Positions 552 through 24,500 of a stretch of DNA of 64,000 bases are shown piece after piece. Position 1 is the stretch's first letter, and every line of letters starts with the position of its first letter. The stretch comes from Protula sp. h YS-2021 (lineage: Eukaryota > Annelida > Polychaeta > Sabellida > Serpulidae). The stretch is taken from assembly GCA_949752745.1 (NCBI GenBank), contig OX457031.1, forward strand, positions 46,953,257 to 47,017,256, read 5' to 3'. The notes below the pieces were generated by a model. The model saw only the letters and a list, made by a program, of their open reading frames with translations, made no database searches and was not told where the DNA came from. The translations under genes and the position numbers were made by a program.

Positions 552-3500
552 GCCTGAGATGTCTCTCCACGACAGATAAATCATTCTCGTCGTTACTTTG
601 GCGTGAGTCCGTGACGTCATATAGCTTTATTATGGGGGAATCCTTTGTCAGGCATGCCAGCAAATTATTTCTGAAAACAAAGACAGGCCAGGGTCAACAG
701 AAGCGGGCAAGAGAGGTCCTGAATATGTCTTTTCTCCTTCAGGCATGATAAGCGCTTTTCTAACAGCAATTTCGTTATTTTCTAAACATTCGCATTCTTA
801 GGTGTTTACAGAGTTTAAGCTGCACATTTCCACCTTTTTATCTACAACTGGGGAACATATACGACGCACCACCCTGGTCGGCTCTCGCGCGGTTTCTCAC
901 CTTGCCTGGATACACGCGGATTCTCACCTGGTTGGTCCACATGCAGGTTCCCAGCGGTCTTACCTAGTTGAGCCACGCACGGCTTCTCACCTGGTCGGAT
1001 CACGCGCAGTTTCTCACCTCGCCTGGCTACGCGCGGATTCTCGCCTGGTTGGGCCACATGCGGGTTCCCTTCAGTTTTGGCCACGCGCGGGTTCTTACCT
1101 AGTTGAGCCACGCGAGGATTCTCACCTGGTTGGGCCACTCGCGGATCCTCACCTGCTTGTTCTACGCGCTGGTTCTCACCTGGTTCAGCCGACTGTCAGT
1201 TCTTACCTGGATGACTGGCGCAGATTTCCACCTGGTTAGGGCACGCGCGGATTCTCACCTGGTCGGGGCACGCGCAGGTTCTCACCTGGTTCGGGCAGGT
1301 GCTGGTTCTCATCTTGTTGGAGCAGGCGCGGATTCCAGCCTGGTTTGGCCACGCATTGTTCTCACATGGACGGACCTAGTGCGGCTTCTCACCTAGCTGG
1401 GCCAGGCGCTGGTTCTCACCTGGTTGGGACAGGCGCTGGTTCTCACCTTGTTTAGCCAGGCGCTGGCACTCACCTGGTTGGGCCAGGCGCTGGTTTTCAC
1501 CTGGTTGGGCCAGGCGCTGGTTCTCACCTGGTTTGGCCAGGCGCTGGCACTCACCTGGTTGGGCCAGGCGCTGGTTCTCACCTGGGTTGGGCCAGGCGCA
1601 GGCGCTCACCTGGTTTGGCCAGGCGCTGGTTCTCACCTGGTTGGGCCAGGCGCTGGTTCTCACCTGGTTTGTCCAGGCGCTGGTTCTCACCTGGTCGGGC
1701 CAGGCGCTGGCGCTCACCTGGTTGGGCCAGGCGCTGGCACTCACCTGGTTGGGCCAGGCGCTGGTTCTCACCTGGTTGGGCCAGGCGCTGGTTCTCACCT
1801 GGTTGGGCCAGGCGCTGGCACTCACCTGGTTGGGCCAGGCTCTGGCACTCACCTGGTTGGGCCAGGCGCTGGTTCTCACCTGGTTGGGCCAGGCGCTGGT
1901 TCTCACCTGGTTGGGCCAGGCGTTGGTTCTCACCTGGTTGGGCCAGGCGCTGGTTCTTATCTGGCTGGGCCAGGTGCTGGCACTCACCTGGTTGGGCCAG
2001 GCGCTGGTTCTCACCTGGTTGGGCCAGGCGCTGGCACTCACCTGGTTGGGCCAGGCGCTGGTTCTCACCTGGTTGGGCCAGGCGCTGGCACTCACCTGGT
2101 TGGGCACCACGACAGCTTCACTATGTTCTTGTTATCCGGGATGGTCAGCGTCGGCTTTTCAAAATTTCTTGTGTCCCACAGCACGATCTGGTTCTGAAAG
2201 TAACAAAACCGCTGCCGCTAGATCCAATACCTAATAGCTCATTATACGCCAGCTGATTTTATTACCCAGAAAAAAAAACAGAATACATTTTTTTTTAGGT
2301 TCATGAATTCAAACAGCTGAGCAATTTACACCACAGATGTTGGCATTAGATTATCCAATCCAACACTAATCCGTTGAAGCAGTTACAACATCATAATACT
2401 GCAGCAGAAAACATAAACTATGTACCTGCAAAGAGCGACAAGAGTGTTACGGAGATTGAAGATACCACAATCCCTTACCCAAACTGGCAGACAATAATCA
2501 GACTAAAACGGTACAAAATCTTAAAATGTGGTAACCACCATCACCGCCTCCCCCATCAACTAATCAAAAAAATTGAAGTGGGGGGGAGGGGGGGGGGGTA
2601 GGGGCGGCAGACCTAACTGACCTCTTGGAAGGTGGCCAGGCGACGGTCGTTGTGACGGTCCACGGCGATGCCATTGACGGCTTTAGTAAGGGCGAAACAG
2701 CGCGGCCGCGACGTGTCTGAAACCCACAGGGCGTCAACAAGTCACGCGATAGTAATCAAACCGCATGACGTCAGTCATTAAGCCACGGGACTTCTATGTA
2801 CACACTACGGGACCATGGCTGCCAATCATCAAACCACGCGCCCCGCGGGTCGGTCATCAAACCACGCGGTCACAGCCATCCATCTACAAACTACGCGACC
2901 ATGGGTGCCAGTCATCAAACCACGCGCCCCGCGGGTCGGTCATCAAACCACGCGGTCACAGCCATCAATCTACAAACTACGCGACCATGGGTACCAGTCA
3001 TCAAACCACGCTCCCCGCGGGTCGGTTATCAAACCACGCGTCCACGGGCGCTACTCATCAAAACTACGCGTCCACAACCGTCCATCAGCAAACCACGCAA
3101 CTACGGCGTCAGTCATCAAACCACGTAACAGCCATCAAACCGCCCAACCAGTGGGCAAAACGCGTTCACTGGCACCGGGGCCACGTACTTCTCAATATTT
3201 GCGTATCTGAAGTAGTTGCTAATTTTTCCATGAATTTACAAACTGATAAATTCAAACCGGTTTAAACATTCAAATGGCGAAACTCTTACAACTTGTGCCT
3301 GACGACGACTTGTACTGGCAGAGTATCGCCCGGCCCGTGCTGCGGCGAGCATGGACCTCAAAGGCACACACACCAGCTACACGCACTTCATTTGTCTTTT
3401 TTACTAAGCCCTTACCTCTGAGATCGTATATTCTGAGGAATCTATTGCCAACACCAGTGACAAGACTTTTTGGATTTGAATAAAACCACGCCAAGGAAGA

Positions 3501-6500
3501 TATAACTTCGTTTTGACCTGTGCGAAATTGAAAACAACAGAACAAATAAATAAAATATCTTCATAATAAAGTGCTGCTCGTGAAGTTGAACGCTTAATAT
3601 GTGTCCAGCTAATGGTATGCCACTCAATTCATACCTGTCTTAAAACCGAATAAAAACCACATACAATCAATTTTCAAGGGCAAGGTCATCAAGGCAGTTC
3701 CGGACATGATATTAATATTGGAAATATGTAGATTTATAAAATGTTTAATTCATTTAGTTCCTCTGTTGGGTGCAATTGGAGTGGATTTGTAATTGAAAAA
3801 AACGCGCCAAAACTATGCAAAAATCAGCAACCATATTTTCAAATATCATGTATCAGCATATACAACTGTGAGGGACATCACTAACGCCCATTCCAAGTTG
3901 TGCACCTTTATATTTCTTGCTAAAGTGCGGAATATATCTTTTTCGCCGTTCACGAGATGGAATACTGGTAAAAAATGTTGCTTTGCCTTTTTTGCTTTTC
4001 CACCTATATGGACTTTTGAATGCCAATGCCCGGAATTTTTCCACCTGTGTGGAATTTTCCATGCTATTTGCATTATTTTTTCTACTTGTGTGGATTGTTA
4101 CTCGTGAATTTTGAGTTTCAGAAAAATATAAAATGCTTCTTAAGACGCAACTAATTTTTTTAAAGGTTTTATGGGAACTTTTTGAGTCGATATTCTTAAT
4201 CGGTAGCTTTATCTAAAAAGAAATTTAAGTGATTAATCTTCGACATTTTTAATGCAGTATATTTATACGATACATCACAAAACATAAACACCGTAGAGGA
4301 CGCTACATATATTCGTATATTTTATTTTGTAAATAATATGATCCAACAATTTACGTGTAAATGATACGATGCCATTTCACTGTACCTATTGCTGCTGGTT
4401 CTTTGAAGCTACATACCTAATTCATACGCTGCTTTAGTGATGGGAAGACTGAGATTATCTGACCGCTGGTGGACGTCGTAGATGAGAATGGAGTTGTCTG
4501 GACGATACTTGTCAAGAGTAACGGCTATCTGGAAACAATAAGCACAGCTCGCTCACAGTAAGTCCTGGATGACTAAGTCACATGTGTGCTCAGCACTGCA
4601 CGCTCAAAGTACGTTCTCGCTGATTAAGTCACTGCATTATTACAGTCCCTCCTGGTTGATTAAGTCACCTGTGTGCTAAGCACAGCACGCTCATCGTTAG
4701 TCTTGGCTGATTAAGTCACATGTGTGATATGCACAGCACGCTCTTGGTAAGTCCTAGCTGATTACGTCACATGTGTGCTCAGCAAAGCACGCTCATAGTA
4801 AGTTTTGTCTGATTAAGTCTCTTGTATGTTAAGCACAATAAGACCTGGTTTATTAGTGTTCACGCAGGCACTTATAGAACATTCCGGTTGTCGCAATTAT
4901 CACTTATAGGGCAAGTGGTATACGGGGGGGGGGGGGGGGAGGCCAAACCGCTCCCGGGCCGAACCGCCACGTTTTTTTGGCCGAGTAGGACTAAAACGTC
5001 CCGGAAAAAGACCATCAGGACCAGAGCCCCCCTTGCATTTTACTGGTAATTCACTGGACTCTTTTCAAGGCAAATACAAAGTCTTTGCTACTCATTGGCA
5101 AAGAACAAAAATATCCATGCCCCGGCTGTACAAAGCTTTTCTTTATCGGTATCTGAGATGAAACCATCAATGTCACGATTATCTAAAATGCTGCATTACT
5201 GAACAGACGTTTCGCACGGGGATAAGTAAGCCTGTGTGCTTAATCTCCATTTACTTCAGGTGTCACCTGAGCACTCTTTCATACACCAAAATAGATATTA
5301 AAAAATCGTGTTTTTATACGAGAATAACAATAATTTAAAACAATCAGTTATAACATAGCCACCTGGTTACACAAGTACCTGTCAACGGTCGAGCGATTCC
5401 ACGCCACCTGGTTACACACTTGCCAGCCAAGGATTGAGGGGGTTCCATGTCATCTGGCTACACACTTACCAGTCTAGGGTCGAGCAGTTCCACGTATCCT
5501 GGTTACAAAATTACCTGTCTAGGATCGAGAGGATTCCACACAACCTCGTTACAAACTTACCAACCCGGGGGTCGAGCGGGTGCCGCAACACCTGGTTACT
5601 AGCCTGGGTTTGAGCGGGTTCCACGCTACCTAGTTACATACTTACCAGCCTGGGGTCGAACGGGTTCCACGCCACCTGGTTACTAGCCTGGGTTTGAGCG
5701 GGTTCCACGCCATTTAGTTACATACTTACCAGCCTGGGATCGAGCGGGTTCCACGCCACCTGGTTACAGACACGGGCGTGCTTTGGAATAAGCTCTTTAC
5801 CATTCAAGGAATTCGCGTCACTCCCCTTTCCAAAACTAAAAATCATAGATCATAATTAAATAGATTTAATTGTTATTCAGGGGGATAAACACATATAATA
5901 TGTACTGTACATGCTGTTTACCGTGTATTTAGGAAGAAAAATGACTTTGGGAAAAATGCCTCCTTCTACATCCCCCCCCCCCTACCCTCAGCCCTGACCT
6001 GAGGCACATGTACACATTTTGACTTGACCAGTCCTGACCTGAGGCACATGTACACATTTTGACTTGACCAGTCCTGACCTAAGGCACCTGTACACATTTT
6101 GACTTGACCAGTCCTGATCTGAGGCTGCCCATTTTGACACTTACTTTGTAATGATCACTTTTCCTGTGGACAAACCGGCAGCGACCAGAGTTTCTGATGC
6201 GGGATACCAGGAAACACACTGGAAAGTGACAGGCAATCAGGCGTGACTGAAGGCAAGTGCAACGTCACACAAACACTCATAAGCAGGTACGTACACACAT
6301 ACAGGCTTTCAGGCAGCTGTGGAAATTTTAAGGGTTTTTTAAAGGTTCAGATTTCAAAAATAAAGATCTTTTTAAGGGTTTTTCGGGACCAATATTACAA
6401 GACCAAATTTCGTTAAAATGTAAAAATACACACACTCTGGCAACTTGGAGTACCTTGGAGGTATACAACGTATGAATAATGTACAATAATTTGATAACAC

Positions 6501-8257
6501 AAGAAGTTTTTACGAAACCCAATTCTTCCTGTTTTTTCAAAGACCACATTCGAGGAAGCATCTCAAAAAACCTAGAACAAGATAGCTAGTGCAACTGGTT
6601 ATCGTCCCCCGCTCACAGTCTTCTGTATCCATATCCCCAGAAAAACACTCAATTAACAATTTGGACTATTTTCTTCGATCCCTGCCAATATTCGAACCAA
6701 TCCTAGCCTTTTATTTAAAATGAAGGGTTTTAAATTTCAAATCGATCGGTCAATCCGTTCTCCTTTAAACCAGGGTTCGCGCTGGGTTCTCAGGAAAGTG
6801 AGACAAAAAATGAAAGTGTGACTCAGTTGGGTCCAAAAAAACTCGGTAGGTTCCGAAAAAGTTAGTCATTTCGTAAAAAATGCCCAAAAAGTGGACAAAA
6901 ACCCCGCCAACGCGAACCCTGCTTTAAACAAATGCAAACCAACAAAAAATTGCGTCCCGCAAAACTGTCGTAATTTCGACACTTTCGAACTCGTAAATTC
7001 GAACTCGGTCTAGCCTTTTAAATGATACTGAAAGGATTCAATTTCAAATCTACGGGAACAGGCTTTTTTTCCTAAAATCAGTGGAAGCCAATTTGTGAAA
7101 GATGCAAGGACGGACAGACCGACTCGTACACACAGGCACATGAGGCACTGAACTAACGGGAGCAATGTCGTGTATAAATAGTCACATCGTATAAAGTGGA
7201 ACACGGTTCACTATATTTTCTAAAGAAAAGCATGAATTTGTCTATGGAAAGAACACACGACGATTCTAAAATCGTGTACAGTTAACCGGTTTATGCGGCA
7301 AACGGCTATGCGATTAACTGATATCACCTGTTTCTATATTTCAATTAGCTTTTTTTAAACAAAACACATGGAAGTTAAATGACTCAACAAGTAGTTTCTC
7401 ACAGCCACACCCACCCGTATGCCCAGTAACTCTGTGTTGGTTGATAGCAGCGTGGCTTGTGTATCGTCTGACAACTTTATCACTGCAATCAAAGCACTAC
7501 CACAATTAAACTTAGCATCTTTTTTTTTTTTTTTGTAGTTTATTTGCATAGAAACACACACATCTATTAATTCTTGCGTTGCGAATAGAATCTGTTTGTC
7601 ACCTTGGCACTATAAGATTAGCATGGGCGTCAAGCAGGGACCCATGGGTCGAACTAGAAATCTAAGGAATGGTTGGGGAGGGGGAGTAGGGATGTGTGTC
7701 ATTTGACATCAATCAAAGACCAGTCCGTGTGTAAAATTTTCATCTCACATGGTTTTTTTTTACAAAGTATTGATTCAATTTCTGGCCATTGCCAACACAA
7801 AGAGTATTAAAAAAATGCAGCTCCAACTGCTTCTAAATACAGTAATGTAAAACGTTCACTGGTGCATTACTTCTTTTAATTATTAGTATTATCTGTTCAA
7901 AGGCCAGGATATATAAGTTCCGAGAAATGTCTATCTCATAAATTTTTGATCACTTTTGCCTAATTAAAAAATAATACGATACTGCACATCTGCAACATAT
8001 CTTCATTGAATAAGGCTAAACCTTCAGAAACATCGTTTAACAAAAAATGGCCTAAACATACCGCCAAAGTGACAAAACTCGCGACCAGGCAAAATAAAAG
8101 CCAGACAAATATTTCCAAGAATGCTACCTTGACCTTTGGAGTGCGCGCCTCTTTTCTGTGGTTCCACCCTATAGAGAGATAAGCTGCTTCCGTGCAGGAG
8201 GAACTTGTCTTCTTGTGCCGGCGACCACAACACCTCGCTTCTGTTTGCCAGCATCAT
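552..8257 (-). CDS. mios: mios, GATOR2 complex subunit MIOS: coding exons 1-9 (partial, 3' part beyond window)
   Basis: MIOS is a WD40 scaffold of GATOR2, which relieves GATOR1 inhibition of mTORC1 at the lysosome when amino acids are plentiful. Nine coding exons join in frame on the minus strand: 8128-8257, 7415-7482, 6145-6218, 5730-5835, 4417-4528, 3416-3517, 2622-2716, 2096-2193 and 552-670 (904 nt, ~301 aa of a family norm near 875). All boundaries are AG/GT with matching phases. Visible family blocks: [116 protein letters not shown] and [17 protein letters not shown], collinear with human MIOS. They form the N-terminal beta-propeller. The start is ATG at 8257, followed by a second ATG. 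Exon 9 ends with one base of the next codon; exon 10 onward lies outside. Introns 3, 4 and 8 contain donor-anchored minisatellites and intron 2 a hAT MITE. Exon calls are from splice consensus and homology, not transcripts. Confidence 0.93.
870..2104 (-). repeat. 27-bp minisatellite growing from the mios exon 8 splice donor
   Basis: From 1393 to 2104 there are about 26 well-kept copies of a 27-bp unit; 870-1392 holds more diverged copies of the same unit. On the mios strand the unit reads TGGCCCAACCAG then GTGAG, then a 10-base spacer. Exon 8 ends TGGTGCCCAACCAG followed by GTGAGT, so the unit is the last ~14 exon bases plus the donor. Because 27 is a multiple of three, several frames stay open for over 200 codons on both strands; none is a gene. 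The fresh copies are adjacent to the exon and the older ones far from it. Confidence 0.93.
2755..3135. repeat. 86-bp tandem repeat in mios intron 6
   Basis: About four copies of an 86-bp unit built on the phrase catcaaaccacgcg, which occurs twice or more per unit. The motif gaccatggg recurs at 2811, 2897 and 2983, giving an exact 86-base period. Copies decay to the right. The array ends about 40 bases upstream (in mios sense) of the exon 7 acceptor. Confidence 0.9.
4538..4830. repeat. ~51-bp tandem repeat next to mios exon 5 acceptor
   Basis: Five to six diverged copies of a unit with gctgattaagtcacatgtg and agcacagcacgctc. The start phrase recurs near 4557, 4608, 4695, 4746 and 4798. It lies in intron 4, starting about 10 bases upstream of the exon 5 splice acceptor. 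No clear exon sequence is included. Confidence 0.85.
5354..5766 (-). repeat. 46-bp minisatellite copied from the 3' end of mios exon 4 and its splice donor
   Basis: About nine or ten units of 46 bp, with two 38-bp deletion variants. On the mios strand a unit reads GTGGAACCCGCTCGAY, CCCAGGCTG, then GTAAGTATGTAACCAGGTGGC. Exon 4 itself ends [10 protein letters not shown] with GTAAGT at 5729, so each full unit repeats the last ~25 exon bases, the donor and ~20 bases joining to the next unit. The 38-bp variants have lost the GTAAGT. Divergence rises with distance from the exon. Confidence 0.93.
5989..6144 (-). repeat. 40-bp minisatellite starting at the mios exon 3 splice donor
   Basis: Three and a half copies of a 40-bp unit (plus strand: tgacctgaggcacatgtaca then cattttgacttgaccagtcc). 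On the mios strand the copy nearest the exon begins at the donor itself (GTAAGTGTCAAAATG), and later copies begin TCAAGTCAAAATG. No exon bases are copied, unlike the exon 4 and exon 8 arrays. Confidence 0.88.
6771..6921. mobile_element. 151-bp hAT-type MITE with perfect 8-bp target duplication
   Basis: The ends are inverted: CAGGGTTCGCG at 6771 and CGCGAACCCTG ending at 6921. The flanks are identical 8-mers, CTTTAAAC at 6763-6770 and 6922-6929. A CAGGG terminus with an 8-bp duplication is the hallmark of hAT elements. No coding capacity. It sits in mios intron 2. Confidence 0.92.
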
Positions 8258-8284
8258 GACCGACTCACTGGAACAGCAACTTAC

Positions 8285-8632
8285 GAGTCAAGCGAGATCT
8301 AAAACAAAGAGATGTGTCCACGACCTGGGCACTCTAGTCACGACCGAAAGCTCGAAGAGAAGGTCAATGTGTCCACAACTTGGGCACTCTCGTTACAAGG
8401 AAGAGTTGTGTCCATGCCTAGGGCACTCTCGTCAAAAGCGAGAGCTAAAACAAAGAGAGTAAATGTGTCCACGACTTCTGCATTCTCGTCAGGAGCGAGA
8501 GCTGTAACAAAGAGGCAGATGTGTCCATGACTTGGACACTCGTCATAAATGAGAGCTGTAACAAAGAGGGCAGATGCGTCCGCGACTTAGGCACTCTAAC
8601 AAGCGAAAGCTGCAACAAAGAGGGAATGAGAT
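8285..8632. repeat. ~55-bp tandem repeat immediately 5' of mios
   Basis: Six imperfect units containing atgtgtccacgacttgggca, followed by ctctcgtca and aaagcgagagctaaaacaaa. Unit starts are near 8310, 8366, 8406, 8463, 8519 and 8574. It starts only ~30 bases upstream of the mios ATG, so it occupies the 5' UTR or core promoter of mios. Confidence 0.85.
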
Positions 8633-9519
8633 CATTTTTTGGCGGTTCTGCAAAAGGTAACTTTTTAAGACAGGACCGCTTGGTAAGTATTTATATAAAA
8701 TTTGAAGGCAGTGTGATCAAAGCTGAGGAAGAATAATCAATAAAAATTGGCAACCAAAAAATTAAAAGTGCCACCCATTTGGTCAAATTTTGGTGGATCA
8801 CCAAAACAGTAACTACCTAGAGAATGATTGTACGAAATTTGAAAAGAATTCGATCAAATCTGAGGGAGAAGAAGCAGGTTTAGTAAAAAATTACATACGC
8901 AGATACGTGCGTCACACACGATGGGTGCCCCCTCCCCCCCCCCCCCCCCTATTCATGTGATAAGACCAGCCCAATGAATTGGGCTGGTCTAAAAAGATAT
9001 TTTTGTGAAAGGACCGCCTCGGAAAAGAAATTTAAAACAATTCAATCAAAACTGGAAAAAAAACAAACATCTTGAATAATTTTTATATAAGCACATATGC
9101 ATGACGGATTCCCTCAATGATGTGAGAAATGTCCGCGGAAATGAATTAACACTAAGTAAATTTATTAAGTTCGTAAAGTACAACAAGGACAAGGATTACT
9201 AAGTCTTCTATGCAGTTAGAACATGTGTGATTACATCATATAAATACTAGAGCGATCGGTGCACAGTGTACCACCCTCCCTCCTCCTCAAAAAAAAAATC
9301 AAAAAAAAATCGACAAGCATAGATTTGGAGGCTGGATTCGGAAAGAAATGAACAGATTAGTTTAAGCTACCCAGGCTATCACCCTACCAAGTTGAATGAA
9401 GATCTGAGTTTCCACTGAATTTCGACAGCCACAACAAGTTTTTAAGTTCTGACGTCATATAACATCACGCGTTGTACACTATGTCAAATGCAACACCAAC
9501 AGTCACACCAACCCAAGGT
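8633..9519. other. Intergenic, no gene seen; one perfect hairpin
   Basis: No exon or gene recognised. At 8963-8990 there is a perfect inverted repeat with 13-base arms (AGACCAGCCCAAT) and a 2-base loop. A C-run is at 8930-8949. The rest is AT-rich unique sequence. Confidence 0.6.
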
Positions 9520-10105
9520 ATAACCCAATGAGCCTAGGGCTCCGTAGGCTCAATGTAGCAACCGTAGGCATAGATTTTCGTACGTCGGCCCTATGTATGT
9601 CCTACGATTCTTACCCTACGCAGGCTGGCCTCGGCCGGCCAACGGAAAGACTACATTGTATGCCTATCATAGGTTTTGAGCACAATATCGCTCACCGGAA
9701 ACGCCGCCATTTTAATGATGCTGAGTGAAAATACCAGATTGAGTAGGTTCAAATTACATTTTGAAAAGGCGCGATGTGTTTTTTCTTATCATAATAGAGA
9801 AATAGATACGAATCTGATCTTTGTCCCACTTTCAATGTCTAGATGACTTATTAATTAATGATAATGATTTGATTAATTAATAACAAGAACTACGTCGGGC
9901 CTATGTAGGAACGTTGCGTCCGACATACGTAGGTCAAGCATAGGCAACGTAGGCACAAACTACATTGGGCCAACGTATTGCCTATTTATCGGGCCTACGT
10001 AGGGCCGATGAGCAAAACTACGTCCAGCCTACGTAGGCAACTTGCATTGGGCCTACGTAGACCGTAGGCAAAAACAACGTTGGCCCTACACAGGGCCAAT
10101 GTCTG
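9520..10105. repeat. Palindrome-rich repeat built on CCTACGTAGG
   Basis: Two blocks (9530-9670 and 9895-10105) are crowded with variants of cgtaggc, ggcctacgtagg and caacgtaggc in both orientations, separated by ~220 bases of AT-rich sequence. The outer edges carry partly inverted phrases (accCAAGGTATAACCCAAT on the left, ATCTGGGTTG on the right). It probably is a non-autonomous fold-back element; ends are not proven. Confidence 0.6.
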
Positions 10106-10385
10106 TCTGCTATCTGGGTTGAAACTGTTCCGACGCTGTCCGCAGAATTATCGCATTAACAAAATTTAGCTGGTACGTCATACTTTAGAAAATACAGAAT
10201 AATAATTGAATGTCTCCGCGATTTTTTACATCTTGTTGACATTTTATGCACACGTTTAAAATAGATTTTTTAACCTGTCACAAAACATCTAAAATCTATT
10301 GACTGCCTTATAAATGAAGTAAGATTTTCGAGTCCGTTGCGCATTTGAAACTACGCATTTGATATTATTTACTTGTTTCAGACAT

Positions 10386-10388
<3 letters not shown>

Positions 10389-10466
<78 letters not shown>
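10389..10466. repeat. (AT)n microsatellite
   Basis: Uninterrupted AT dinucleotide run of about 39 repeats. Confidence 0.98.
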
Positions 10467-10469
<3 letters not shown>

Positions 10470-12712
10470 GGGAGAATCTAAATTGGTGAAATGAACAAGA
10501 ACATCTTCTGTGGTTCAAACAAATTTATTTTGTATTTTGTCACAAAATGATGTATATTTAAGTGGCTAAGGTTGCAAAACTTGCAACTGGCTTATTTAGA
10601 GGAGTTTTTTTTTTCAACCGAGAGATTTACCGTGCAAGGAAGAGGTGACTCGGAGCTGTCGGTTCTTGAGGTATCTTCCTGTTGCACGCCGAGGACGAAC
10701 AATGAAGACCTAAATTCAGTACTCGGGAGAAGAAATGGGAATTCGAAGAAAATACTCAGGCTGATAACTTAGTGTTTTTGATTTTTTAATTTGGGGTTCA
10801 TGTTCAGCAAATATCAGGGCGATATATGCGGATCTTTCAGTTTGTAGTTTAAATCGTTGCTATAAAATACCTGACCTCTACTGAACAGTAGAGGTTGGCT
10901 GCTACATAACAACGGATTTAAACAATAATTTTTTATTTGGTACTTACGACCACTATTGACGACGTTTGTCAAGGCGCTTGCAAGCTAGTTAGTCAGCGGA
11001 AATTTAGCTACCCATTTAACTTGTATTTATACTAGGAATAACTTTTACTGTTGTTATTCAAGCATCATTCTTCTTTGGAGGGAAAAGTTGATATTGCTTA
11101 GTATGCATTCATACGTACAAACCCCAGTTACAAACTTGATTCGACAAGGGTGCTTTATTCACTTGAGCGGAAAAATCACTTTTTTGTGCCATAAGGACTT
11201 TTTAAATTGCCTCCTTATCAATACCGAACAAAGTGCTCACAATATCATTCAACTTTTTCCTGACATTAACAAGGAACATTTTGAAAAAGTGCCCCCCCAC
11301 CAAAAAAAAAAAAAAAATAAATAAATAAATAAATTAATTAATTAATTAAAGGCTGATTTTCAAAAGAGGGCTACCTTGGGATTTTTATAGGAATTATTCT
11401 AAAATAAGCGTTTTAAAAACTAACCCCCAAAAATATAAATACCGCCATTCGAACAATTTTTATGAAGTCAAGAATAGTTTAATGATATTGTTAATAAGAG
11501 GCATCTTACTCCTTTCGATAACTCATTTTGATGTGAAACTTGTTTCAACTATATCATTAATATTCTTATTTTCTTTTTATTTAATAATGCTACCATTTAT
11601 TTATTTACTAATTTGTGAAGTAATGATTGAAGTGGGTTTTCTTTTTGACATCTTTAAAGGATTAAGTTATGGCTGCGGAAGAATCGCAGGGCCTGAAATT
11701 GGTCAGGTTGAAGAACTGGCGACAAGTTCTGTAATCTTGCCATGTATAATTATTGCACATTGTGTTTTCATTTGCACGCGTGTAATGCGGAGTTTGATAA
11801 TAATATAACCAGGTTTCACTATATTAAAGATTAAAATAATCGAATCCATTCTCCCTTTTTTAATCAAGAATGTCCACGGCCACTGTGACCAGCTGAGAAA
11901 GTTTCTGACAGAATTGCCACTACCACCATTACTAGGATAACCCACGTTTTTCCAATTTGGACTGAATGAACCATTATATCCAAATTTATTCAACTGAACA
12001 ACACAAAAACCACATGAGGTTCAAATTAAAAATGATCAAGATATAACATCGATATCTCATACTAATAATTTAATTTTGAAGAGTACGGAAATCAGGTGAC
12101 AGTCCATGTAGATGTAACCGTTCGGACATTAGCCTTCGCTTTTTAGACCAGCAAACGGCTTTCCTAGTCATATCTGTTGGGGCTTCTATCGTTTGTGTAT
12201 GTACGTACATATTACTGAAAACACTACTTTTCCCATAGTTTTGGCATAGTTGCTTTCAGTTTTGTATGGTCTTTTTTTTACAGTTTTGACCATCCTATTA
12301 GGGATGCATTTTCTACATTTTTTTTGGTAGCCAGTTTTTAAAAAGCTGTAGAATTTTGATAGAATTCCTTTTTCAAGAATGGATCCCAAAAGTCGTCTCA
12401 ATTTAGTTACTTTTTAGCGATCCGCCACACATTTTTTAAATGGGAGAACTTTTTAATTATCGTCCACAGTCAGGTCACAAACAAAAAATTGGCTTTGATT
12501 TTGAAAACAGTTACCAGATACTGAGTTCATTTTCTACACTTTAGGCATAATAAGCACGACATAAAAGGGCTGGGGTATATTTTTTTAACATAGCTTTCAT
12601 GACTTATTGATTAAACCGGGAGGCATCTAATATCTCTTTAGATGAACTCATATGCGTGTGAAGTAATGGATAAAATTAGTAGTGTAAAAACAAGAGTTCT
12701 ACGGCATGAAGT
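10467..12712. other. Intergenic, no gene recognised
   Basis: AT-rich sequence with scattered short open frames (for example 10572-10772 and 11482-11808) that lack recognisable domains or splice context. An (AAAT)n/(TTAA)n microsatellite is at 11305-11350. I see nothing supportable as a gene. Confidence 0.55.
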
Positions 12713-13000: not shown

Positions 13001-13003
13001 ATA

Positions 13004-14290: not shown

Positions 14291-14399
14291 ATACTATGAC
14301 GTAATATGTTTTCTCGACTAAAAATACTTCAAACACATGTTTGAATGGGCTTGCCATTCGAACACATCTTTGAATGGGGGGTAAGCTCCAACCAAAGTG

Positions 14400-14895
14400 C
14401 TTACAGCTACCTATGCAAATAGTTATAATTAATTTAAACTATACATCAAACTGAATGAAACGGTGAAATTTTCATTCAAATCGGTTAACCATGAGGGAAG
14501 TTATCTCACTTTCAAGTTAAAATTTTAAAATGAATCCATGATGCACACAGCCACCGGTACAAATAGCCTCTGATCACTTAATGTTAAAACTAGATATAAA
14601 ACTGAATCAAACGGTAAAATTTTCATACAAATCGGTCAATTATAACGAAAGTTATCTCACTTTTTCACTTTTTATAAAGTTAAAATGGCGGCATGTTACA
14701 AATATCCATACAGCCAAATATACATACAGCCAAATAGCCTGTGACTACTTTATAACAAAACGTTACATAAAACTGAATCAAACAGTGAAATTTTCATGCA
14801 AATCGGCCAACTATAGCGAAAGTTATTTCACTTTTTCACTTTTTTAAAAAGTTTCAATTATGCTTACAACCACCTATGCAAATAGCCACTTACTG
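14400..14895. repeat. Three copies of a ~150-170-bp tandem unit
   Basis: The phrase aaactgaatcaaacngtgaa followed by attttcat, caaatcgg and agttatctcactttttcac recurs at 14449, 14600 and 14769. It belongs in style to the nucleosome-length arrays elsewhere in this window. Confidence 0.85.
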
Positions 14896-15320
14896 AAAAG
14901 GCTGCCATTGTTGTTGCATCAATCGTTAGTATGAGTGGGGAGGTCATCCTTATATACCACTTAGACTTCATGAAAAATGGTGTGTATCTCGCCAAACAGC
15001 ACTTTGTTTTCAGCTGACTTGGCTGAATTTTGCTCTCCTAGGGAGGGGGAGGGGGAGGTGTCGTCAGATAGTATGTCCTGCCGGGGGGGGGGGGGATGGA
15101 GGGGGGTCGGCAGATAGTTTGTCCTGCGGGGGGAGGTCCTCCCTTTTTCACCATGGTTACGATGCCTATTATGACGTCATAATGGGTTCCACACATAGTA
15201 TGTCCTAGGGTTAAGCCGATTAGGGTTAGGGTTATGCCGCTTAGGGGAGTCTAACGTCATGACGTCCTTATGACGTCATCATGGCGTCACCATGACGTCA
15301 TCATGACGTCATCACGTCAT

Positions 15321-16370
15321 CATTATGAGCTCATTAGAACGGGCACGCGCTTTATCCAAAAAAAAATGGCGCAGAAACCCCATGCCGGTTCTGCGCCACC
15401 TTTGACGTCACTTCCTGGCGCAGAACCGGCCTTTTCATACTACTAAAATTTGAAGGCAAATATGGATTTATAACATAAGGATCGCAATATAATAAAAAGA
15501 ACAAGAAGCCTACTTATATATCAATGGAAGACTTGTCAATAGTTTGAGCATGGAAAGTGTGAATTTCGTTCAAGCTACAAAGCAAAATACAATTGGAAGC
15601 CACTGTAATAAATTATTAACGATTGCCAATCCACGCAGAATTTGTCAATTGCGATACTTTACATAACTGATTTGCCTTGTTTACTTGTTGCTGAAAAAAA
15701 TCTTTTTGTGGTAAGAGTTCGGTTGTCGTTTGTAAGCGTGTCAGTATGTTACGATTTTATGTCAACATTTCTGTCACCGGTAGACTGGCCAGCGATCTTT
15801 TGTTGATCTTCTTTGCTTGATGCGTTTTGGGAAAAATATCTTAATATCGCCCATTATCGATATCGCCCATTATCGATTAGTGTTAACTTTAAAGATTAAC
15901 TTACTGTGGTGTGGCCTTTTCCATTTCAACTCAGAGAAGCTCTTTTGGGAGCTTCTAGTAGTTTTTTAAATTACTTGTCATGAAATTACAGAGATATTAT
16001 CCTGTAAATGCGTATATACGGTCTGTACAACAGGCGATAATAACATGATAAGTTAAAAAAAGTCCACAGATGCGGGTATCATGTATACTAAAATGCTCAG
16101 GGCATGATTATGAGGAAATTCATACCTACACCTATTTTAATGACTGAGTATACAGTGTTCACTGACTAAAGAGTCAGTCACTGTGGGGTACTGAAATATG
16201 TGCTTTTCTTCTGCCATCACTTCCCTTCAAAATGGAACAATTTTCTGGCAGTCACGACCCCATATGGTGGGTAAAAAATGAAACAATCGTAGAGCTTAAA
16301 AAGCAACAAAATTTCTTTTGAAAACAGCTGCATTTCTTGCTGAAATAAAAAATACGAGACTGTTGTGATA
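15321..16370. other. Intergenic, two small hairpins, no gene
   Basis: At 15367-15400 TGGCGCAGAA and its complement TTCTGCGCCA form a 10-bp stem, and the same phrase recurs at 15417. At 16157-16188 a second stem is built on actgact/agtcagt. No exon recognised. A CT-rich microsatellite is at 16385-16410. Confidence 0.5.
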
Positions 16371-17459
16371 AAACACACCTACTCGTCTCTCTCTCTCTTT
16401 CTCTCTCTCTCGCTGATTATCAGTTCCCCGCCACCGCGCGTGGCGCGGAGCGAGGGACTTATAAAACGGGCCGTGTCCGCCCGTCTGTCCCGGTCCGTCT
16501 GTCTGTCCCCATCTATAGTGGTAAGTTTATACGTGCCATATCTCAGTAACTAATAAAGTTCTTTCATTTCTTTCCTGCCAGAGAGAGTACATAAATTGGA
16601 GGTGTGCAACGCGTAGTTATTTATAATTTTTCTAAAAAATTGAAAAATTGCCAGATTTTTTAGATGTTGTGAAAATGTCCAAATACCCCTATGTAGAGTG
16701 GTAAGTGTGTACGGGCTACATCTCAGTCACCATTAAAGTGTTTTTATTTTTCTCTTGCATACAGAGAGAGATTATATTGGAGGTGTGCAACACGTGGTTA
16801 TTTTTTATTTTTCTCAAAAAATGTGCAATTGCCAGATTTTTTAAATTTCGTGAAAATGTGCAATTGCCCTGATGTATAGTGGTAGGTTTCTGCGCGCTAG
16901 ATCTCAGTCATTATTAAAGGGATTTTATTTTTCTCTTGCACACAAAGAGAGCGTATATTGGAGGTGTACAATGCGTGGTTGTTTTTTATTTTTGTCGAAA
17001 ATTGAAAAATTGCCAGATTTTTTAGATGTTGTGAAAATGTCCAAATACCCCTATGTAGAGTGGTAAGTGTGTACGGGCTACATCTCAGTCACCATTAAAG
17101 TGTTTTTATTTTTCTCTTGCATACAGAGAGAGATTATATTGGAGGTGTGCAACACGTGGTTATTTTTTATTTTTCTCAAAAAATGTGCAATTGCCAGATT
17201 TTTTAAATTTCGTGAAAATGTGCAATTGCCCTGATGTATAGTGGTAGGTTTCTGCGCGCTAGATCTCAGTCATTATTAAAGGGATTTTATTTTTCTCTTG
17301 CACACAAAGAGAGCGTATATTGGAGGTGTACAATGCGTGGTTGTTTTTTATTTTTGTCGAAAATTGAAAAATTGCCAGATTTTTGAAATGTTGTAAAAAT
17401 GTGTGATAACCACTATTTATAGTGTTAAGTTTGTGCGCGCCATATTTCAGTAACTAATA

Positions 17460-19131
17460 CAGGGTTGAGATTTCGCGGTCACCCATGGCGACCAACTTTT
17501 GGCTCGGGCGACCAACTTTTTCGAGTTGGTCGCCCGAGTGGCGACTAACTTTTTTCTGAGTATTTTCAGGTAAATACTGTTGATAATTTTAAACAGCAAT
17601 TTATACGAAAATGACTTTTGTATAAATTTTGCTTTCAGGGAGATTTTCACATTTGAAATAAACTTCAAATAACTACAAAGTATGGATACTTAAGACACCT
17701 ATTTGTTGTTTTTAGGCCCCAACCGGGCCAATAGACTTGGGGTGTCTGTCTGTCCGTCCGTCTGTCCGTCCGTCTGTCTGTCCGTCATCGCTTTTTTTGT
17801 ACAAGCGATATCTCGTAAGCGCAGATGCCTAGAGACTTGATGTTGGGCTCATTTGAAAGATCTCGACTTGTAGATGTGCCTTTTGGCCATTTTGGCCAAA
17901 TTCGATCACGTGATCTTGGCCAAATTGGCCAAAAACGCAAAAAATCGACTTGTGTTTGTACAGGCGATATCTCGAGAACGCAGAGGCCTAGAGACTTTAT
18001 GTTAGGCTCATTTAAAAGATCTCGTGTTGTAGATGTGCCTTTTGGCCATTTTGGCCGAATTCGATCACGTGATCTTGGCCAAATGGGCCAAACAACGCAA
18101 AAATCGACTTGTGTTTGTACAGGCGATATCTCGAGAACGCAGAGGCTTAGAGACTACATGTTAAGCTCATTTGAAAGGCCTCGACTTGTAGATGTGCCTT
18201 TTGGCCATTTTGGCCAAATTCGATCACGTGATCTTGGCCAAATTGGCCAAAAATGCAAAAAATCGACTTGTGTTTGTACAGGCGATATCTCGAGAACGCA
18301 GAGGCCTAGAGACTTCATGTTGGGCTCATTTGAAAGGTCTCGACTTGTAGATGTGCTTTTTGGCCATTTTGGCCATTTTGGCCAAATTCGATCACGTAAT
18401 CTTGGCCAAATTGGCCAAAAACGCAAAAAATCGACTTGTGTTTGTACAGGCGATATCTCGAGAACGCAGAGGCCTAGAGACTTGACGTTAGGCTCATTTG
18501 AAAGGTCTCGACTTGTAGATGTGCCTTTTGGCCATTTTGGTCAAATTCGATCACGTGCTCTTGGCCAAATTGGCCAAAAATGCAAAAAATCGACTTGTGT
18601 TTGTACAGGTGATATCTCGAGAACGCAGAGGCCTAGAGACTTCATGTTGGGCTCATTTGAAAGACATTTTGGCCGAATTCGGTCACGTGATCTTGGCCAA
18701 ATTGGCCAAAAAAAACGCAAAAATCGACTTGTGTTTGTACAGGCGATATCTCGAGAACGCAGAGGCCTAGAGACTTGATGTTGGGCTCAATTGAAAAGTC
18801 TCGACTTGTAGATGTGCCTTTAGGCCATTTTGGCCAAATTCGGTCACGTGATCTGCTAAATTTTGGGGGTAAAAAAAGATTTTCCGCCAGCCAGTTTCAT
18901 TGTTTTTCAAAGTTTTGAGCAGAAGTAGGACATTTATTTTTCTTGGCCTAAACTGGTCAACAGGTTCAAAACCATAGACGACCCCTTACAATTTTGGGGG
19001 CGTTGGGGCCTGTTAGTGTTCACTGAATACTTGTTTCATGTAAGGCGGGCTAGACAAATTTTGCCAAAATTGCGGTGGGCGACTAACTTTTGTGCCGGGC
19101 GACCAGAAAATTTTACGAAGTCCCAACCCTG
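17460..19131. mobile_element. 1.67-kb non-autonomous hAT-like element with CAGGGTTG termini
   Basis: The left end CAGGGTTGAGATTTCG at 17460 and the right end, whose complement is CAGGGTTGGGACTTCG, are inverted. Both ends carry subterminal gcgaccaacttt phrases. It is flanked by TAATA at 17455-17459 and 19132-19136. The empty site can be read directly from a neighbouring monomer (19264 on: cagtaactaatacagtgatt), giving a 5-bp duplication. hAT ends with 5-bp duplications are known (hAT5 group). The interior is the 159-bp array; no transposase. Confidence 0.85.
17790..18860. repeat. 159-bp tandem array (about 7 copies)
   Basis: The phrase ggcgatatctcgagaacgca recurs at 17963, 18122, 18281, 18449, 18609 and 18742 (mostly 159-160 apart, one +9 and one -26 variant). 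It is preceded by a (gtctgtccgtc)n header at 17743-17790. Since 159 is divisible by three, a 317-codon open frame (17825-18778) runs through the array and is not a gene. Confidence 0.95.
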
Positions 19132-19426
19132 TAATACAGTGATTTCATTTCTTTCTCGCACAGAGAAAGTACATATATAGAAAAATTGCCAGATTTTTGA
19201 AATGCTATGAAAATGTGTGATAACCGCTATTATTATAGTGGTAAGTTTGTACACGCCATATTTCAGTAACTAATACAGTGATTTCATTTCTTTTTTGCAC
19301 AGAGGGAACATATATTGGAGGTGTGCAATGCGTGGTTATTTTTGATTTTTCTAAAAAAAAAGAAAAATTACCAGATTTTTTATATGTTATGAAAAATGTG
19401 TAATTTCGACTACTTCTGAATTATAA

Positions 19427-19500
19427 GCCCACCACCTGTTTTTGAACTCTGTACCTATCGCTTGTCGAGCGAGCATCATACCAACTGAGGTAAACCGGTT
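19427..19500 (-). repeat. tRNA-like segment, probable SINE head or tRNA pseudogene
   Basis: On the minus strand: an A-box-like ACCTCAGTTGGTATGATGC, an anticodon-arm-like TCGCTCGACAAGCGA stem, and a degenerate B box GAGTTCAAAAAC. No intact acceptor stem is seen, so it is not a working tRNA gene. It abuts the 181-bp satellite. Confidence 0.45.
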
Positions 19501-19559
19501 AAGTACAAATGTTAGCTTTGAAATGTGCTCTCATTAGCTGTTGATCGATATTGATCGAG

Positions 19560-21060
19560 AGCAGCAGAGCCTGCAGTTGGATGATTGCTGTTGTATAAGA
19601 CGGGTATCTCAAGTTTAGCTCAACAGATTTCAACCAAAATTGGTAGGCAGAATGGTGGGCAAAGGCACTTGACCTGATTAGTTTTTGGTAACCTTGGGTC
19701 AAAGGTCAAGGTAACTTTTTTAAGGTCACTGAAACTTTTAAATTTTTCTGTTGGAAACACAATATCTCAGGTTGTGCGCCATGTGCACGCTGTTGTGGAC
19801 ATGATATGTCAAGTTTGGCTGGGCGGATTGCAAGTAAAATTGGCATTTACGTTGGGAAGCTAAGGATCTTGACTTGATTAGGTTTTGGTGACCTTGGGTC
19901 AGAGGTCAAGGTCACTCGGACTGTTTTATTTCAAAAACGGAGGTGCGGCGGGGGACTTGACCAGATCACTGGTATACTTGTTTACACTTGTTACTGAAAG
20001 TCCCATTGAATTCCTGTGTCAACAGGCATTGCGAAAGTTTCTGCTTGTTCCCTTTTTAAGGCTAGGAAATAAAACTTGGCACTTAAGGTGAACCATGGAA
20101 AAAATGGTTGACCTATGGCGTCATGTTTGAGAGTTGTAAATGCTCTTAGTTTGGCATTCAGTGAAAAAAAGACAAGATATATACGCGCTTCATAGGATAA
20201 GATTTTTTGCAGATTGAATGTTCGAGATATCCGGAGTTTGGTGACAGATATTTGAAGAAAGACAGCTGAAGGCGTCAAGACATTTGTTTTGTGTTCAGCA
20301 TGGAACTGGGCAGTTCAGCGGCACAAAGTGACATTTTGTAAGTAAACATGAAGATGAAGACCACATTAATCAAATTTGGCCCCCATATACTATTCGTATA
20401 TAGAAAGCTGAGTTCCGACTTCGAGTACTGAAATATAAGCGTCTGCCATATCACCTGCCAAATCTGGAAGGAGCATTAATGAATAGCGTCTTGCCCTCAT
20501 ACTCAATTTTACTGTGATGGTGGGGGGGGGGGGGGTGTCCGGCGGTTCATGATATTTGTTATATAAAGCACAAAGTATGATGTGATATAACGTCATTCTG
20601 TGTTTTGGACACCAGACTTTGTCAACAGGTTGACTGTCGAACGACAAGCCCGGCAGATTCAAACTTGTTGGGATTATGCATCAGGTGGATCCCCCATTGC
20701 TGTTGTATATGACATATATTGGACAACGCATGACATCATATGATGTTGAAACTTGCAAAATGCATGATCACTACAACTTAAGAACGAAACATTAGATCGG
20801 CTTCAAATTTCGGAATATGCCTTTTGATGGGTCCGACGGTTCGTGTTGTATTTGGTGTATATAGCACAACGTATAACGAAATATGAAGTTAACAAGACGT
20901 TTTGATAACAGGATAACTCGAAAATGACAAGTCGGAACAGCTTCAAATTTGGCGGCATTATGCCTTAGGTTGGTCCGCAAGTTGCAATTTTTCACGCATG
21001 TTGGACAACGCGTGATGTCATATGATATCAAAGCGTGAAAAATGCGTCATCACTGAGCGT
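19560..21060. repeat. Degenerate tandem repeats of the ~160-200-bp class
   Basis: Two copies at 19560-19925 share ttgacctgattaggttttgg followed by tgaccttgggtca and ggtcaaggtca. A second set at 20340-21060 shares cttcaaatttgg, ggtccg, ttggacaacgcgtgatgtca and tatgatatc. No gene seen. Confidence 0.6.
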
Positions 21061-21527
21061 GAATTTGCATTATGGCCAACTGAAATATCTAGTGTACCGT
21101 CATAGTAAGTTTATAATAAACGCCAAGTGGCTAGGGGACCGTCACTTCAATTTCCAAACTAAATATGGCTTTCACCTGTTTTTTTTTTTTTTAGTTTAAC
21201 TGTATAGAAGCTAGAGTGGCACATCATAGCCTAAATAAATATAAAATAGACTGGCGAGTGTACATTTATCTGTGTGACCGCGCCGAATACGGAACATGTT
21301 TTCCTTCTGCAGTTTGTAAATTTACCAGGTGGAGTGGCCAGTGGGTCTGAAATTCAACCACCTCACTCTACACAAAGACAATAGTATATCATAAAACTTG
21401 AAGTATCGTTTGTGTACGTTATATTTACTCACTTTGTACTATCTTATTTCACCCAAGAAAAAATAACACCTCAAGCTTTAGTACATATTAGAAATTAACA
21501 AATTCAGATATTTATTTTTTTTTAAAG

Positions 21528-24500
21528 AAGGGACGAGGAGAGAATAGTCCCTCCACGCGAGGAGTGTATGCACACACCGTGTTACTGCGAGGAGAACGTG
21601 TGGAAGCTATGTGAGCGAATCAGCAAAGGCGACGCCGCGTGCCTGCAGGGCGCATGCGCCGTCTTCATATCCAACCACAACAGGTATTCCCAGCTGTAAT
21701 CCTTCGTATATAACCACACCGGGTACCCCCAAATGTCATCCTTCATATCCACTCACAACAAGTACTCCCAAATATCCTCCTTCATATCCACCCACAACAG
21801 GTACCCCCAACTGTAATCCTTTATATACAACCACAGTAGAGCTCCCAAATATCATCTTTCATATCTAACCACAACAAGTACTCCCAAATGTCCTCCTTCA
21901 TATCCATCCAAACCAGGTACCCCTAACTTCCAGCGTTCATGTCCAACCACATGGCTCCAACTGTCATCCTTCATATCCATCCATATCTTGTATCCCAAAC
22001 TGAGATCCTTCACAGCCAGCCACAATAGATAACCCCAACTGTCATCCTTCACAGCCAGCAACAATAGATAACCCCAACTGTCATCCTTCACAGCCAGCAA
22101 CAATAGATAACCCCAACTGTCATCCTTCACAGCCAGCCACAAGAGATATCCCCAGCTGTCATCCATCACACCCAGTCACAACAGATACCCCAGCTGTCAT
22201 CCTTCACACCCAGCCACGACAGATACCCCAGCTGTCATCCTTCACACCCAGCCACAACAGATACCCAAACTGTCATCCTTTACAGTCAGCCACAACAGAT
22301 ACCCCCAACTGTCATCCTTCACAGTCAGCCACAACAGATACCCCAACTGTCATCCTTCACAGTCAACCTCAACAGGTACCCCCAACTGTCATCCTTCACA
22401 GTCAGCCACAACAGATACCCCCAACTGTCATCCTTCACAGTCAGCCACAACAGATACCCTCAAGTGTCATCCTTCACAGCCAGCCACAACAGATGCCCTC
22501 AAGTGTCATCCTTCACAGCCAGCCACAACAGATGCCCTCAATTGTCGTCCTTCACAGCCAGCCACAACAGATGCCCCCAACTGTCATCCTTCACAGTCAG
22601 CCACAACAGGTACTCCCAGCTGTCATCCTTCACACCCAGCCACAACAGGTACTCCCAGCTGTCATCCTTCACAGTCAGCCACAACAGATACGCCCAAGTG
22701 TCATCCTTCACAGTCAGCCTCAACAGGTATTCCCAGCTGTCATCCTTCATAGTGGCCACAACAGGTACTTACAACTGTCATTCTACGCATCAAACCACGA
22801 AAGGTAAAAATTTGAGGCAGACTCATAACAGGAATATGAAGTTTAAAATCAAATTTGTTTGTTTCTAGAATGATTCCAATATGGCAGCAGCGCTCGAGTA
22901 AGGACAAGGACGGCGTTGTGGTATGGGACTATCACGTGATACTGGTTGCTAGGCACCAGCGCAGCCGGCGCCATTTTGTTTATGACCTGGACAGGTTAGC
23001 TTTCATTTCCAATGAGCATATTGTCTACGATTTAATCCATGACGTTTATTCACCGAGAGACTGTGGTTTACCAAGACTCTATAAAGACTTTACATTCAGA
23101 TCCCCACTGCCCAACCTCCTCCTTTCATGAGTAACAAAAGTAACCAACAAAAAAAAAAAAAAAACGAACCACGAAAATATCGGTGCATATCTTTTGATTC
23201 TAAACCAAATAATGGTGACCAATTTAAAAAATATAACTGCTAGGAAAGTTATTGTGATGAGGTTAGGGAATCTTTGTTTGCAGCATTCTCTTCATATTAC
23301 GCATTGACTATTCTTGCGCTGTTTGTATTCTCGGCGAGTCGAAAATTCGATTTTTTATTGTGTATATTTCAGCAAACTCAGTTTTCCGTGTGACTTTGAC
23401 CAGTACGTGGTCGAGGCGATACGCAGTGAGGATGCGATGGCCGCACCGTACAGGAGACTGTTCCGCGTCGTGCCCGCCGAGCGCTACCTCGCGACCTTTG
23501 CGTCAGATCGGAGTCACATGCTGAAGGTAATTGAGCAGAAACTAGAGCCGCATTTCGCTAACGAAATGCTAAACACTTGACAAAAATTAAAACACAAAAA
23601 TACTTTTTTCAATGGGTTATTTCTTGAATACAACAACATGCATACAGTGTTATACAACTATGTACAGAGCTTATGGCACAGCATGTATGCGGCTTATAAT
23701 ATTCTAAAAAAATCGGACCACTGTCAAAGAAAAACTCCATAGGCATACGCTGTGTTACCTGTTTACGCAGTGGGAGCTCGCACTCTTTTTACATGGCGTT
23801 TTAACAAAGAAAACGAAATCGAAGACGAAAATAAAAAGTGGCATGCACACGTTCAGATCAAGGTCTTCATAAGTCCCAAGTTTCATGGTCCTAGGGCCCA
23901 TAGTGTCAGAGAAGAAGACACAAAAAATAGGAAAAAGTGTTAAGAAGAAAAAAAAAGAACGAACGGTTGCTCATATAACCCTTGCAAGCTAACAGCTTGT
24001 CAAGTGTTCAATAAAGACCTTGTGCTTAGGGTAATGTGCGGAGTGAGGCAGTCACATATTTAAAGTAAAGTGAGGGGGTGTCGCAGCCACATGCTTGGAG
24101 TAAAATGAGGGGATGTCGCAGCAACATGCTTAAAGTAAGGTGAGATGTGAGACAACACATGTTTAAAGTAAGGCAAGGGTGAATAAGTCACATGCTTAAA
24201 GTAAGTGAGAGGTGAGAATCCACATGCTTATAGTAGTGGGGGGGGGGGGGCGGTGAGGTAGCCACATGCTTAAGTTAAGGTGATGAGTGAGACAGCCAGT
24301 TGCTGGGATTAATTTGGCGGGCAGGGTGAGGCAGCCACATGCTTACAGTAAGACCTCCCTGTTTACACCGAAACTGATAGGGTATTCACTATGCAGAAGC
24401 ATTCACATACGCAAGCTGAATACCATAATGACAGCTTCAGATTGAAAAAAAAGACAATCAAAAGATAAATGAAATGCGTCACTCGTTAGAGGTTGTTCTC

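What the first reader, a model, noticed from the sequence alone, without database searches (positions are those of the whole stretch)
552..24350. Minisatellites repeatedly start at 5' splice sites and copy the exon end plus the GT donor
In two separate genes (mios and NTAQ1), and possibly a third (TMEM198), introns open with tandem arrays. In the clear cases (mios exons 4 and 8, NTAQ1 exons 2 and 3) the unit spans the exon/intron junction: 27 bp (TGGCCCAACCAG + GTGAG), 46 bp (CCCAGGCTG + GTAAG), 39 bp (AACCACAACAG + GTAY) and ~35 bp (CACATGCTTAAA + GTAAG). Unit sequences are unrelated to each other, so they are not one dispersed repeat; each comes from its own exon. That implies a recurring process that duplicates DNA at donor sites, such as slippage at R-loops or a break/repair event guided by the junction. 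It leaves introns with up to ~45 reiterated donor-like sites, which could bind U1 snRNP. I know of no described system of this kind, but could not search.
Basis: partly seen in the sequence, partly recalled or inferred. Interest (0 to 1): 0.93.

Follow-up and report, generated by a model that had tools for sequence, protein, structure and literature searches.

The report
Splice-donor "mirage" minisatellites in a tubeworm
In a genome that is likely a tubeworm's, short DNA repeats at the start of some introns copy the end of the neighbouring exon with its splice signal; such repeats are already published for lancelets, and counts here show no special preference for these sites, so they are likely ordinary repeat growth that splicing would tolerate.

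Summary
Four arrays (mios coding exons 4 and 8; NTAQ1 exon 2 and the exon ending at 23526) have units that copy their own exon end plus the donor. Similar arrays occur elsewhere in the genome (WD40, myosin and dynein genes). The genome is likely a serpulid annelid (nearest named COX1 hits 62% and 58% identical). The interpretation, a process aimed at donors, is not supported. Among 103 sampled exons, 10 of 87 scored donors were duplicated nearby, against 214 of 1454 random noncoding points, 15 of 85 points 60 bp into the intron, 4 of 72 acceptors and 0 of 94 exon middles. A genome-wide count of paired donor words against the reversed word gave 27 clusters where 27.4 were expected. Donors sit at background, while coding exons, and more weakly acceptors, are spared. 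That fits a high general rate of tandem duplication (TRF arrays cover about 11% of sampled gene neighbourhoods and 18% of the window), filtered by selection. Such junction arrays are published in amphioxus as "mirages" (Adh3, TnC, globins, PGBD5), so this is a new, probably annelid, occurrence of a known kind. Which donor is used, and any U1 role, were not testable here.

The parts
2096..2202 (-). mios coding exon 8 (human MIOS aa 243-279, ends WCPTR); first intron base is 2095; upper limit is the end of the tblastn match, not a tested acceptor
   Evidence: tblastn with a recalled human MIOS sequence; donor position
958..2105 (-). 27-bp array whose unit is exon end + donor (GTGCCCAACCAG|GTGAG...); 37 copies besides the junction, GT in 34
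   Evidence: TRF; copy alignment
5730..5825 (-). mios coding exon 4 (from aa 93; tblastn match 5825-5739, donor read from the sequence); first intron base 5729, CCCAGGCTG|GTAAG
   Evidence: tblastn
5361..5768 (-). 45/46-bp array reaching 39 bp into the exon; 8 copies, GT in 7
   Evidence: TRF
5989..6125 (-). 40-bp array starting about 20 bp inside the intron after mios coding exon 3 (donor 6144); no exon sequence detected in it
   Evidence: TRF
21550..21683 (+). NTAQ1 exon 2, ends AVFISNHN; first intron base 21684; lower limit is the end of the tblastn match
   Evidence: PDB sequence search, tblastn
21663..22806 (+). 39-bp array: 21 bp exon end + 18 bp intron start; 28 copies besides the junction, GT in 11 of 26 (often GT to AT)
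   Evidence: TRF
23377..23526 (+). NTAQ1 exon with match to human aa 102-149; first intron base 23527
   Evidence: tblastn, Pfam PF09764
24060..24350 (+). degenerate ~35-bp array related to the exon end (CACATGCT..AAGTAAG), about 0.5 kb downstream of the donor; end beyond 24235 by eye
   Evidence: TRF (to 24235); similarity test against null
8423..8623 (-). ~54-bp array upstream of the mios ATG exon; unit resembles the sequence around a candidate acceptor (possible acceptor-side mirage, seen by eye only)
   Evidence: TRF; sequence; not tested further
4653..4837 (-). 51-bp array in the same intron as 5361-5768, near the acceptor of mios coding exon 5, without exon sequence as far as seen by eye
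   Evidence: TRF; sequence

Best explanation
These arrays are junction-spanning minisatellites whose units copy the end of their own exon together with its GT donor, and they most likely arose by ordinary, genome-wide short tandem duplication and expansion that would be tolerated at donors because splicing is predicted to keep using the exon-proximal copy. Shown: the units come from the local exon; the copies lie downstream in the intron; in five of the six arrays counted most copies keep GT; donors are hit at about the same rate as other noncoding points; exon middles were not hit in the final count (0 of 94), and acceptors less often than random points. Inferred: short segments anywhere in genes are duplicated (slippage or microhomology-mediated repair), then expand and homogenise; selection removes those that break coding sequence or the branch-point/acceptor region, and leaves those that only add donor copies behind the real one. 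Predicted from protein continuity, not shown by RNA: the match to human MIOS (aa 279) and NTAQ1 (aa 60) runs straight from the first donor into the next exon, so the first of the tandem donors is the one used.
For: (103 exons of WD40, myosin, AMP-binding and AAA_6 families; a 40-bp window at the point has a copy within 400 bp at score 18 or more): donors 10/87, random noncoding 214/1454, donor+60 bp 15/85, donor+120 15/82, acceptors 4/72 (p 0.025 vs random), acceptor-60 5/71, exon middles 0/94 (p < 1e-5 vs random)., a looser version: donors 15/91, random 181/969, acceptors 5/73, exon middles 7/103; paired donor words against the reversed word, normalised by single-word counts: clusters 20 and 7 observed, 21.2 and 6.2 expected; arrays 11 and 7 observed, 8.3 and 3.5 expected (conditional p for arrays 0.64 and 0.17). 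TRF arrays cover 11.2% of 229 kb (10.6% without L091, which was fetched for its array) and 17.7% of the window; 8 distinct exons with donor-side copies and 2 with acceptor-side copies among 107. The arrays reach 10, 39 and 21 bp into the three window exons (TRF limits, donors) and the dynein unit holds at least 70 bp of exon; periods are about 27, 29, 39, 46, 77, 92, 108, 110 and 119 bp; so the breakpoints are not fixed on the junction.
Against: In one search, of 61 arrays with 2.5 or more copies, units with a strong donor word (score above 6) were 16 in sense and 5 in antisense (Wilcoxon over all 61, p 0.048); arrays covering real donors at background rate would add such an excess, but I did not model how much. 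In one search, counting only arrays (two or more hits), donors show 18 against 11.8 expected, 1.5-fold, not significant. Donor against acceptor is not significant by itself (p 0.26), and mere closeness of TRF arrays does not differ (15 donor-side, 13 acceptor-side exons of 107). Power is limited: the upper 95% bound for donors, 20%, allows up to about 1.4 times the random rate. Junctions were predicted from Pfam match ends and a recalled donor matrix, not from transcripts.
Confidence: 0.72

Rival explanations
1. A process aimed at donors (for example R-loops or breaks at the 5' splice site, or U1-linked events) seeds the arrays.
For: Four arrays in two genes of one window; the sense excess of donor-bearing units, 16 against 5 of 61 arrays; 18 paired-donor arrays against 11.8 expected.
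Against: No excess at donors over random noncoding points or over points 60-120 bp into the intron; clusters per motif equal to the reversed word; breakpoints vary.
Confidence: 0.13
2. The donor copies are kept because they do something: for example an array of U1 sites that suppresses premature polyadenylation in the intron or slows splicing.
For: Many copies keep the donor GT: 34 of 37 at mios exon 8, 12 of 13 in a WD40 gene, 12 of 12 in dynein.
Against: In NTAQ1 exon 2 only 11 of 26 keep GT, with a dead form amplified; in the dynein array nearly every base is kept, not only GT (identity 0.98-1.00); donors are not enriched.
Confidence: 0.07
3. The arrays are intermediates of intron gain or exon extension, as proposed for amphioxus globins.
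For: PMC3087553 proposes this for mirages (passages read). In the myosin gene at C11:5624666 the exon frame reads on through the first copy to a second donor.
Against: At mios exons 4 and 8 and NTAQ1 exon 2 the exon frame meets a stop soon after the first donor (read from the sequence); unit lengths are multiples of 3 in some arrays (27, 39, 108) and not in others (29, 46, 77, 92, 110, 119).
Confidence: 0.08

Closest known systems
Amphioxus 'mirages' (Adh3, troponin C, globin BflGb6 and BflGb9, PGBD5 in Branchiostoma)
   Same: Minisatellite-like tandem units that span an exon-intron boundary and carry AG/GT; units of 10-72 bp in Adh3 and about 150-160 bp in globins; apparently normal splicing reported there (PMC3087553, PMC3902484; passages read).
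   Different: Likely an annelid, not a cephalochordate; counted here against random points; 8 donor-side against 2 acceptor-side cases among 107 exons. No RNA or polymorphism data here.
Intron gain by tandem genomic duplication (potato RdRp case)
   Same: Tandem duplication in a gene linked to splice-site sequence (PMC4974935; search listing and start of abstract only; the role of an AGGT segment is recalled).
   Different: There a duplication makes a new intron; here existing donors are copied into an existing intron, often in many copies.
Intronic minisatellites in earthworm metallothionein genes
   Same: Annelid, tandem arrays in introns (PMC12783039; passages read).
   Different: No link to the splice junction is described in the passages read.

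Membership tests
amphioxus-type mirages | tandem units span the exon-intron boundary | tested here: met
   mios exons 4 and 8 and NTAQ1 exon 2; 8 further distinct donor-side exons of 107; dynein
amphioxus-type mirages | many but not all copies carry the AG/GT splice signal | tested here: met
   GT in 34 of 37, 7 of 8, 11 of 26, 7 of 9, 12 of 13 and 12 of 12 copies in six arrays
amphioxus-type mirages | both 5' and 3' intron boundaries can be affected | tested here: inconclusive
   2 acceptor-side single copies among 107 exons; one array in the window by eye only (8423-8623)
amphioxus-type mirages | no interference with normal splicing | not testable with these tools
   no RNA data; protein continuity across the mios and NTAQ1 junctions is consistent
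amphioxus-type mirages | length polymorphism or somatic instability | not tested
   no second haplotype of the window arrays was looked for
   10/87 against 214/1454; clusters 27 observed against 27.4 expected; up to about 1.4-fold not excluded

The most novel reading that the evidence does not exclude
In this lineage a donor junction is effectively free to duplicate: roughly one donor in ten is copied nearby, some introns open with dozens of intact, sometimes stronger, donor copies, and the spliceosome still takes the exon-proximal one. The arrays would then be a natural experiment showing a strict 'first donor wins' rule, possibly with U1 bound along the array protecting the intron, with a modest (up to about 1.5-fold) seeding bias at donors on top.
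Probability: 0.17. Interest if true: 0.72.

Novelty: new member of a known kind. Interest (0 to 1): 0.42.

Why it matters
It extends junction-spanning minisatellites from lancelets to what is likely an annelid and shows that a striking pattern at splice donors can come from a high general rate of tandem duplication plus selection. Because many copies are near-identical donors in a row, the arrays are ready-made material for asking which of several equal 5' splice sites is used and why acceptors appear less tolerant.

Tried and rejected
Mere closeness of TRF arrays does not separate the two intron ends: 15 exons with an array on the donor side and 13 on the acceptor side, of 107. Raw counts of paired donor words mislead: 303 against 68 for CAGGTAAGT, but 45 of the 100 listed hits come from one 14-kb stretch on C2, and CAGGTGAGT gives 515 against 523; I therefore counted clusters within 5 kb. 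The listings stop early, so donor clusters cover the first 481 Mb and 106 Mb only, control clusters the whole assembly and the first 684 Mb; for large clusters I pasted only representative positions into the script. The conditional p values printed used counts one too low for CAGGTAAGT; one search gives them for the right counts.

Six in open frames above 300 codons were left out (107 remain), then four rows on small contigs C74, C91 and C113 (103 remain); C74 and C113 repeat chromosomal loci, C91 was not checked. and 43 further skip three and four rows (a duplicated myosin exon pair, and WD40 rows judged to share an exon with another row). Two donors judged mispredicted (C8:38410711, C11:5624666) were set by hand. 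A stricter version with donor score 5 or more and a harsher filter for dispersed sequence gave donors 6/60, random 180/1323, acceptors 4/51, middles 0/91; I relaxed it because it dropped cases seen. In one search the null threshold was set after leaving out cross-locus pairs scoring 30 or more as related genes; of the 17 exons above it, four were set aside as related WD40 exons, two as the myosin exon pair and one as a second contig copy. A first, harsher threshold gave 6 exons. A TMEM198 array was rejected. The Pfam scan found nothing in the upstream frame of the retroelement.

Papers: PMC3087553, PMC3902484, PMC12783039 and PMC12400804 were read as found passages only; PMC4974935 as search listing and start of abstract. 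The original Adh3 mirage paper is not held. Searches for prior reports. None listed such arrays in an annelid, but the library lacks most subscription journals.
Full report
What is there. The window is part of an 863-Mb assembly of 218 contigs, 99% of it in eleven large ones. Its mitochondrial COX1 is closest, among hits with a species name, to the serpulid tubeworms Ficopomatus enigmaticus (62%) and Hydroides elegans (58%), and a published serpulid, Galeolaria caespitosa, has an 803.5-Mb genome in 11 chromosomes (PMC12400804, search listing and passages). The species is not identified; 'likely serpulid annelid' is my inference. mios lies on the minus strand at the left end of the window and NTAQ1 on the plus strand (NTAQ1).

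The arrays. Two mios donors (first intron bases 2095 and 5729) and one NTAQ1 donor (21684) stand at the edge of arrays whose units contain exon end plus intron start. A fourth array, 0.5 kb after the NTAQ1 donor at 23527, resembles that exon end well beyond chance. By eye, mios has nine coding donors in the window; two carry exon-bearing arrays, and a third (6144) has an array that starts about 20 bp into the intron. TMEM198 (58939-59541) does not fit. The copies are often intact donors: leaving out the junction itself, GT stands in 34 of 37 copies at mios exon 8, 7 of 8 at exon 4, 7 of 9 after 23527, but only 11 of 26 at NTAQ1 exon 2; at mios exon 8, 7 of 32 scorable copies score at least as well as the real donor.

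Beyond the window. Copies of exon sequence in the flanks, above a cross-locus null, were found for 17 of 107 exons: nine donor-side (eight distinct, one a second contig copy), two acceptor-side, four judged related WD40 exons and two of a duplicated myosin exon. A WD40 exon at C2:45561844 has 13 junction copies, GT in 12. In dynein, contig C143 ends inside an array whose unit encodes PYSYEYLGNTGRLVITPLTDRCYR followed by GTAAC, 13 copies found, GT in 12 of 12. So the phenomenon is not confined to the window.

Is it aimed at donors? No, as far as these counts reach. With predicted junctions, 10 of 87 donors have a nearby copy of their 40-bp window, against 214 of 1454 random noncoding points (p 0.53), 15 of 85 points 60 bp into the intron and 15 of 82 at 120 bp. 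Acceptors have 4 of 72 (p 0.025 against random) and exon middles 0 of 94. Two other settings agree on donors against random: 15/91, 181/969, 5/73 and 7/103 for donors, random, acceptors and middles, and 6/60, 180/1323, 4/51 and 0/91 (there acceptors do not differ significantly from random, p 0.30). Genome-wide, paired donor words were compared with the same words read backwards. Per single word, clusters are as expected: 20 against 21.2 for CAGGTAAGT and 7 against 6.2 for CAGGTGAGT; arrays with two or more hits are 11 against 8.3 and 7 against 3.5, neither significant. Nearly half of the listed hits behind the raw 303 against 68 for the first word come from one long array.

What leans the other way. 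Units with a strong donor word are more often in sense than antisense: 16 against 5 of 61 arrays. Some of that must come from arrays that cover real donors at background rate; I did not model how much. The array-only count is 1.5-fold above expectation. Donor against acceptor alone is not significant (p 0.26), and TRF arrays are as often near acceptors as near donors (13 and 15 of 107 exons). A small seeding bias, up to about 1.4-fold, is not excluded.

How it most likely works (inferred). Short tandem duplications arise at a high rate everywhere; TRF arrays of period 12-200 cover about 11% of the sampled gene neighbourhoods and 17.7% of the window. Those inside coding sequence are removed. 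Those near the branch point and acceptor appear to be thinned. Those at a donor only put spare donors behind the real one and stay, if the exon-proximal donor continues to be used. Protein continuity across the mios and NTAQ1 junctions supports that use but does not prove it. Later expansion and homogenisation make the long arrays; in NTAQ1 a form with a dead donor has spread.

What is known. Tandem repeats spanning exon-intron boundaries were named mirages in amphioxus Adh3 and seen in troponin C, globins and PGBD5 there, apparently without harm to splicing (PMC3087553; PMC3902484; passages only; the original Adh3 paper is not held). The arrays here match in anatomy. No listed paper reports them in annelids, within an open-licence library. 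I file this as a new occurrence of a known kind, with a count against random points in this genome.

Corrections made on checking: copy counts now leave out the junction itself (in place), the conditional p values are those, and the row selection is stated.

Noticed in passing
window 32321-37389, minus strand: A non-LTR retrotransposon with a long open frame holding endonuclease, reverse transcriptase and RNase H domains and an upstream frame with CCHC-like motifs (seen by eye, no Pfam match).
   Followed up: partly
L091 (contig C143:23900-25458): A dynein heavy chain contig ends inside a ~92-bp junction array, so such arrays may break the assembly.
   Followed up: partly
G000:C2:92164227-92178335: A stretch of about 14 kb with a ~25/50-bp unit carrying CAGGTAAGT and CAGGTGAGT words (45 listed hits).
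   Followed up: no
G000:C5:49138411-49138824: A 45-bp array whose unit reads VNYMVRQYLADQ before GTAAGT (translated by eye), possibly another exon-end array.
   Followed up: no
G000:C1:2447429-2450165: CAGGTGAGT repeated every 88 bp, 32 listed copies.
   Followed up: no
window 55211-56788: A 35-bp array of 45 copies, 92% alike, open in several frames and not near an exon recognised here.
   Followed up: no
window 17796-18796 and 28201-29210: Tandem arrays of about 159 and 169 bp that look like amplified parts of dispersed elements.
   Followed up: no
L067, C5:14441568-14442057: A duplicated myosin exon pair about 77% alike in tandem, as in mutually exclusive exons.
   Followed up: no
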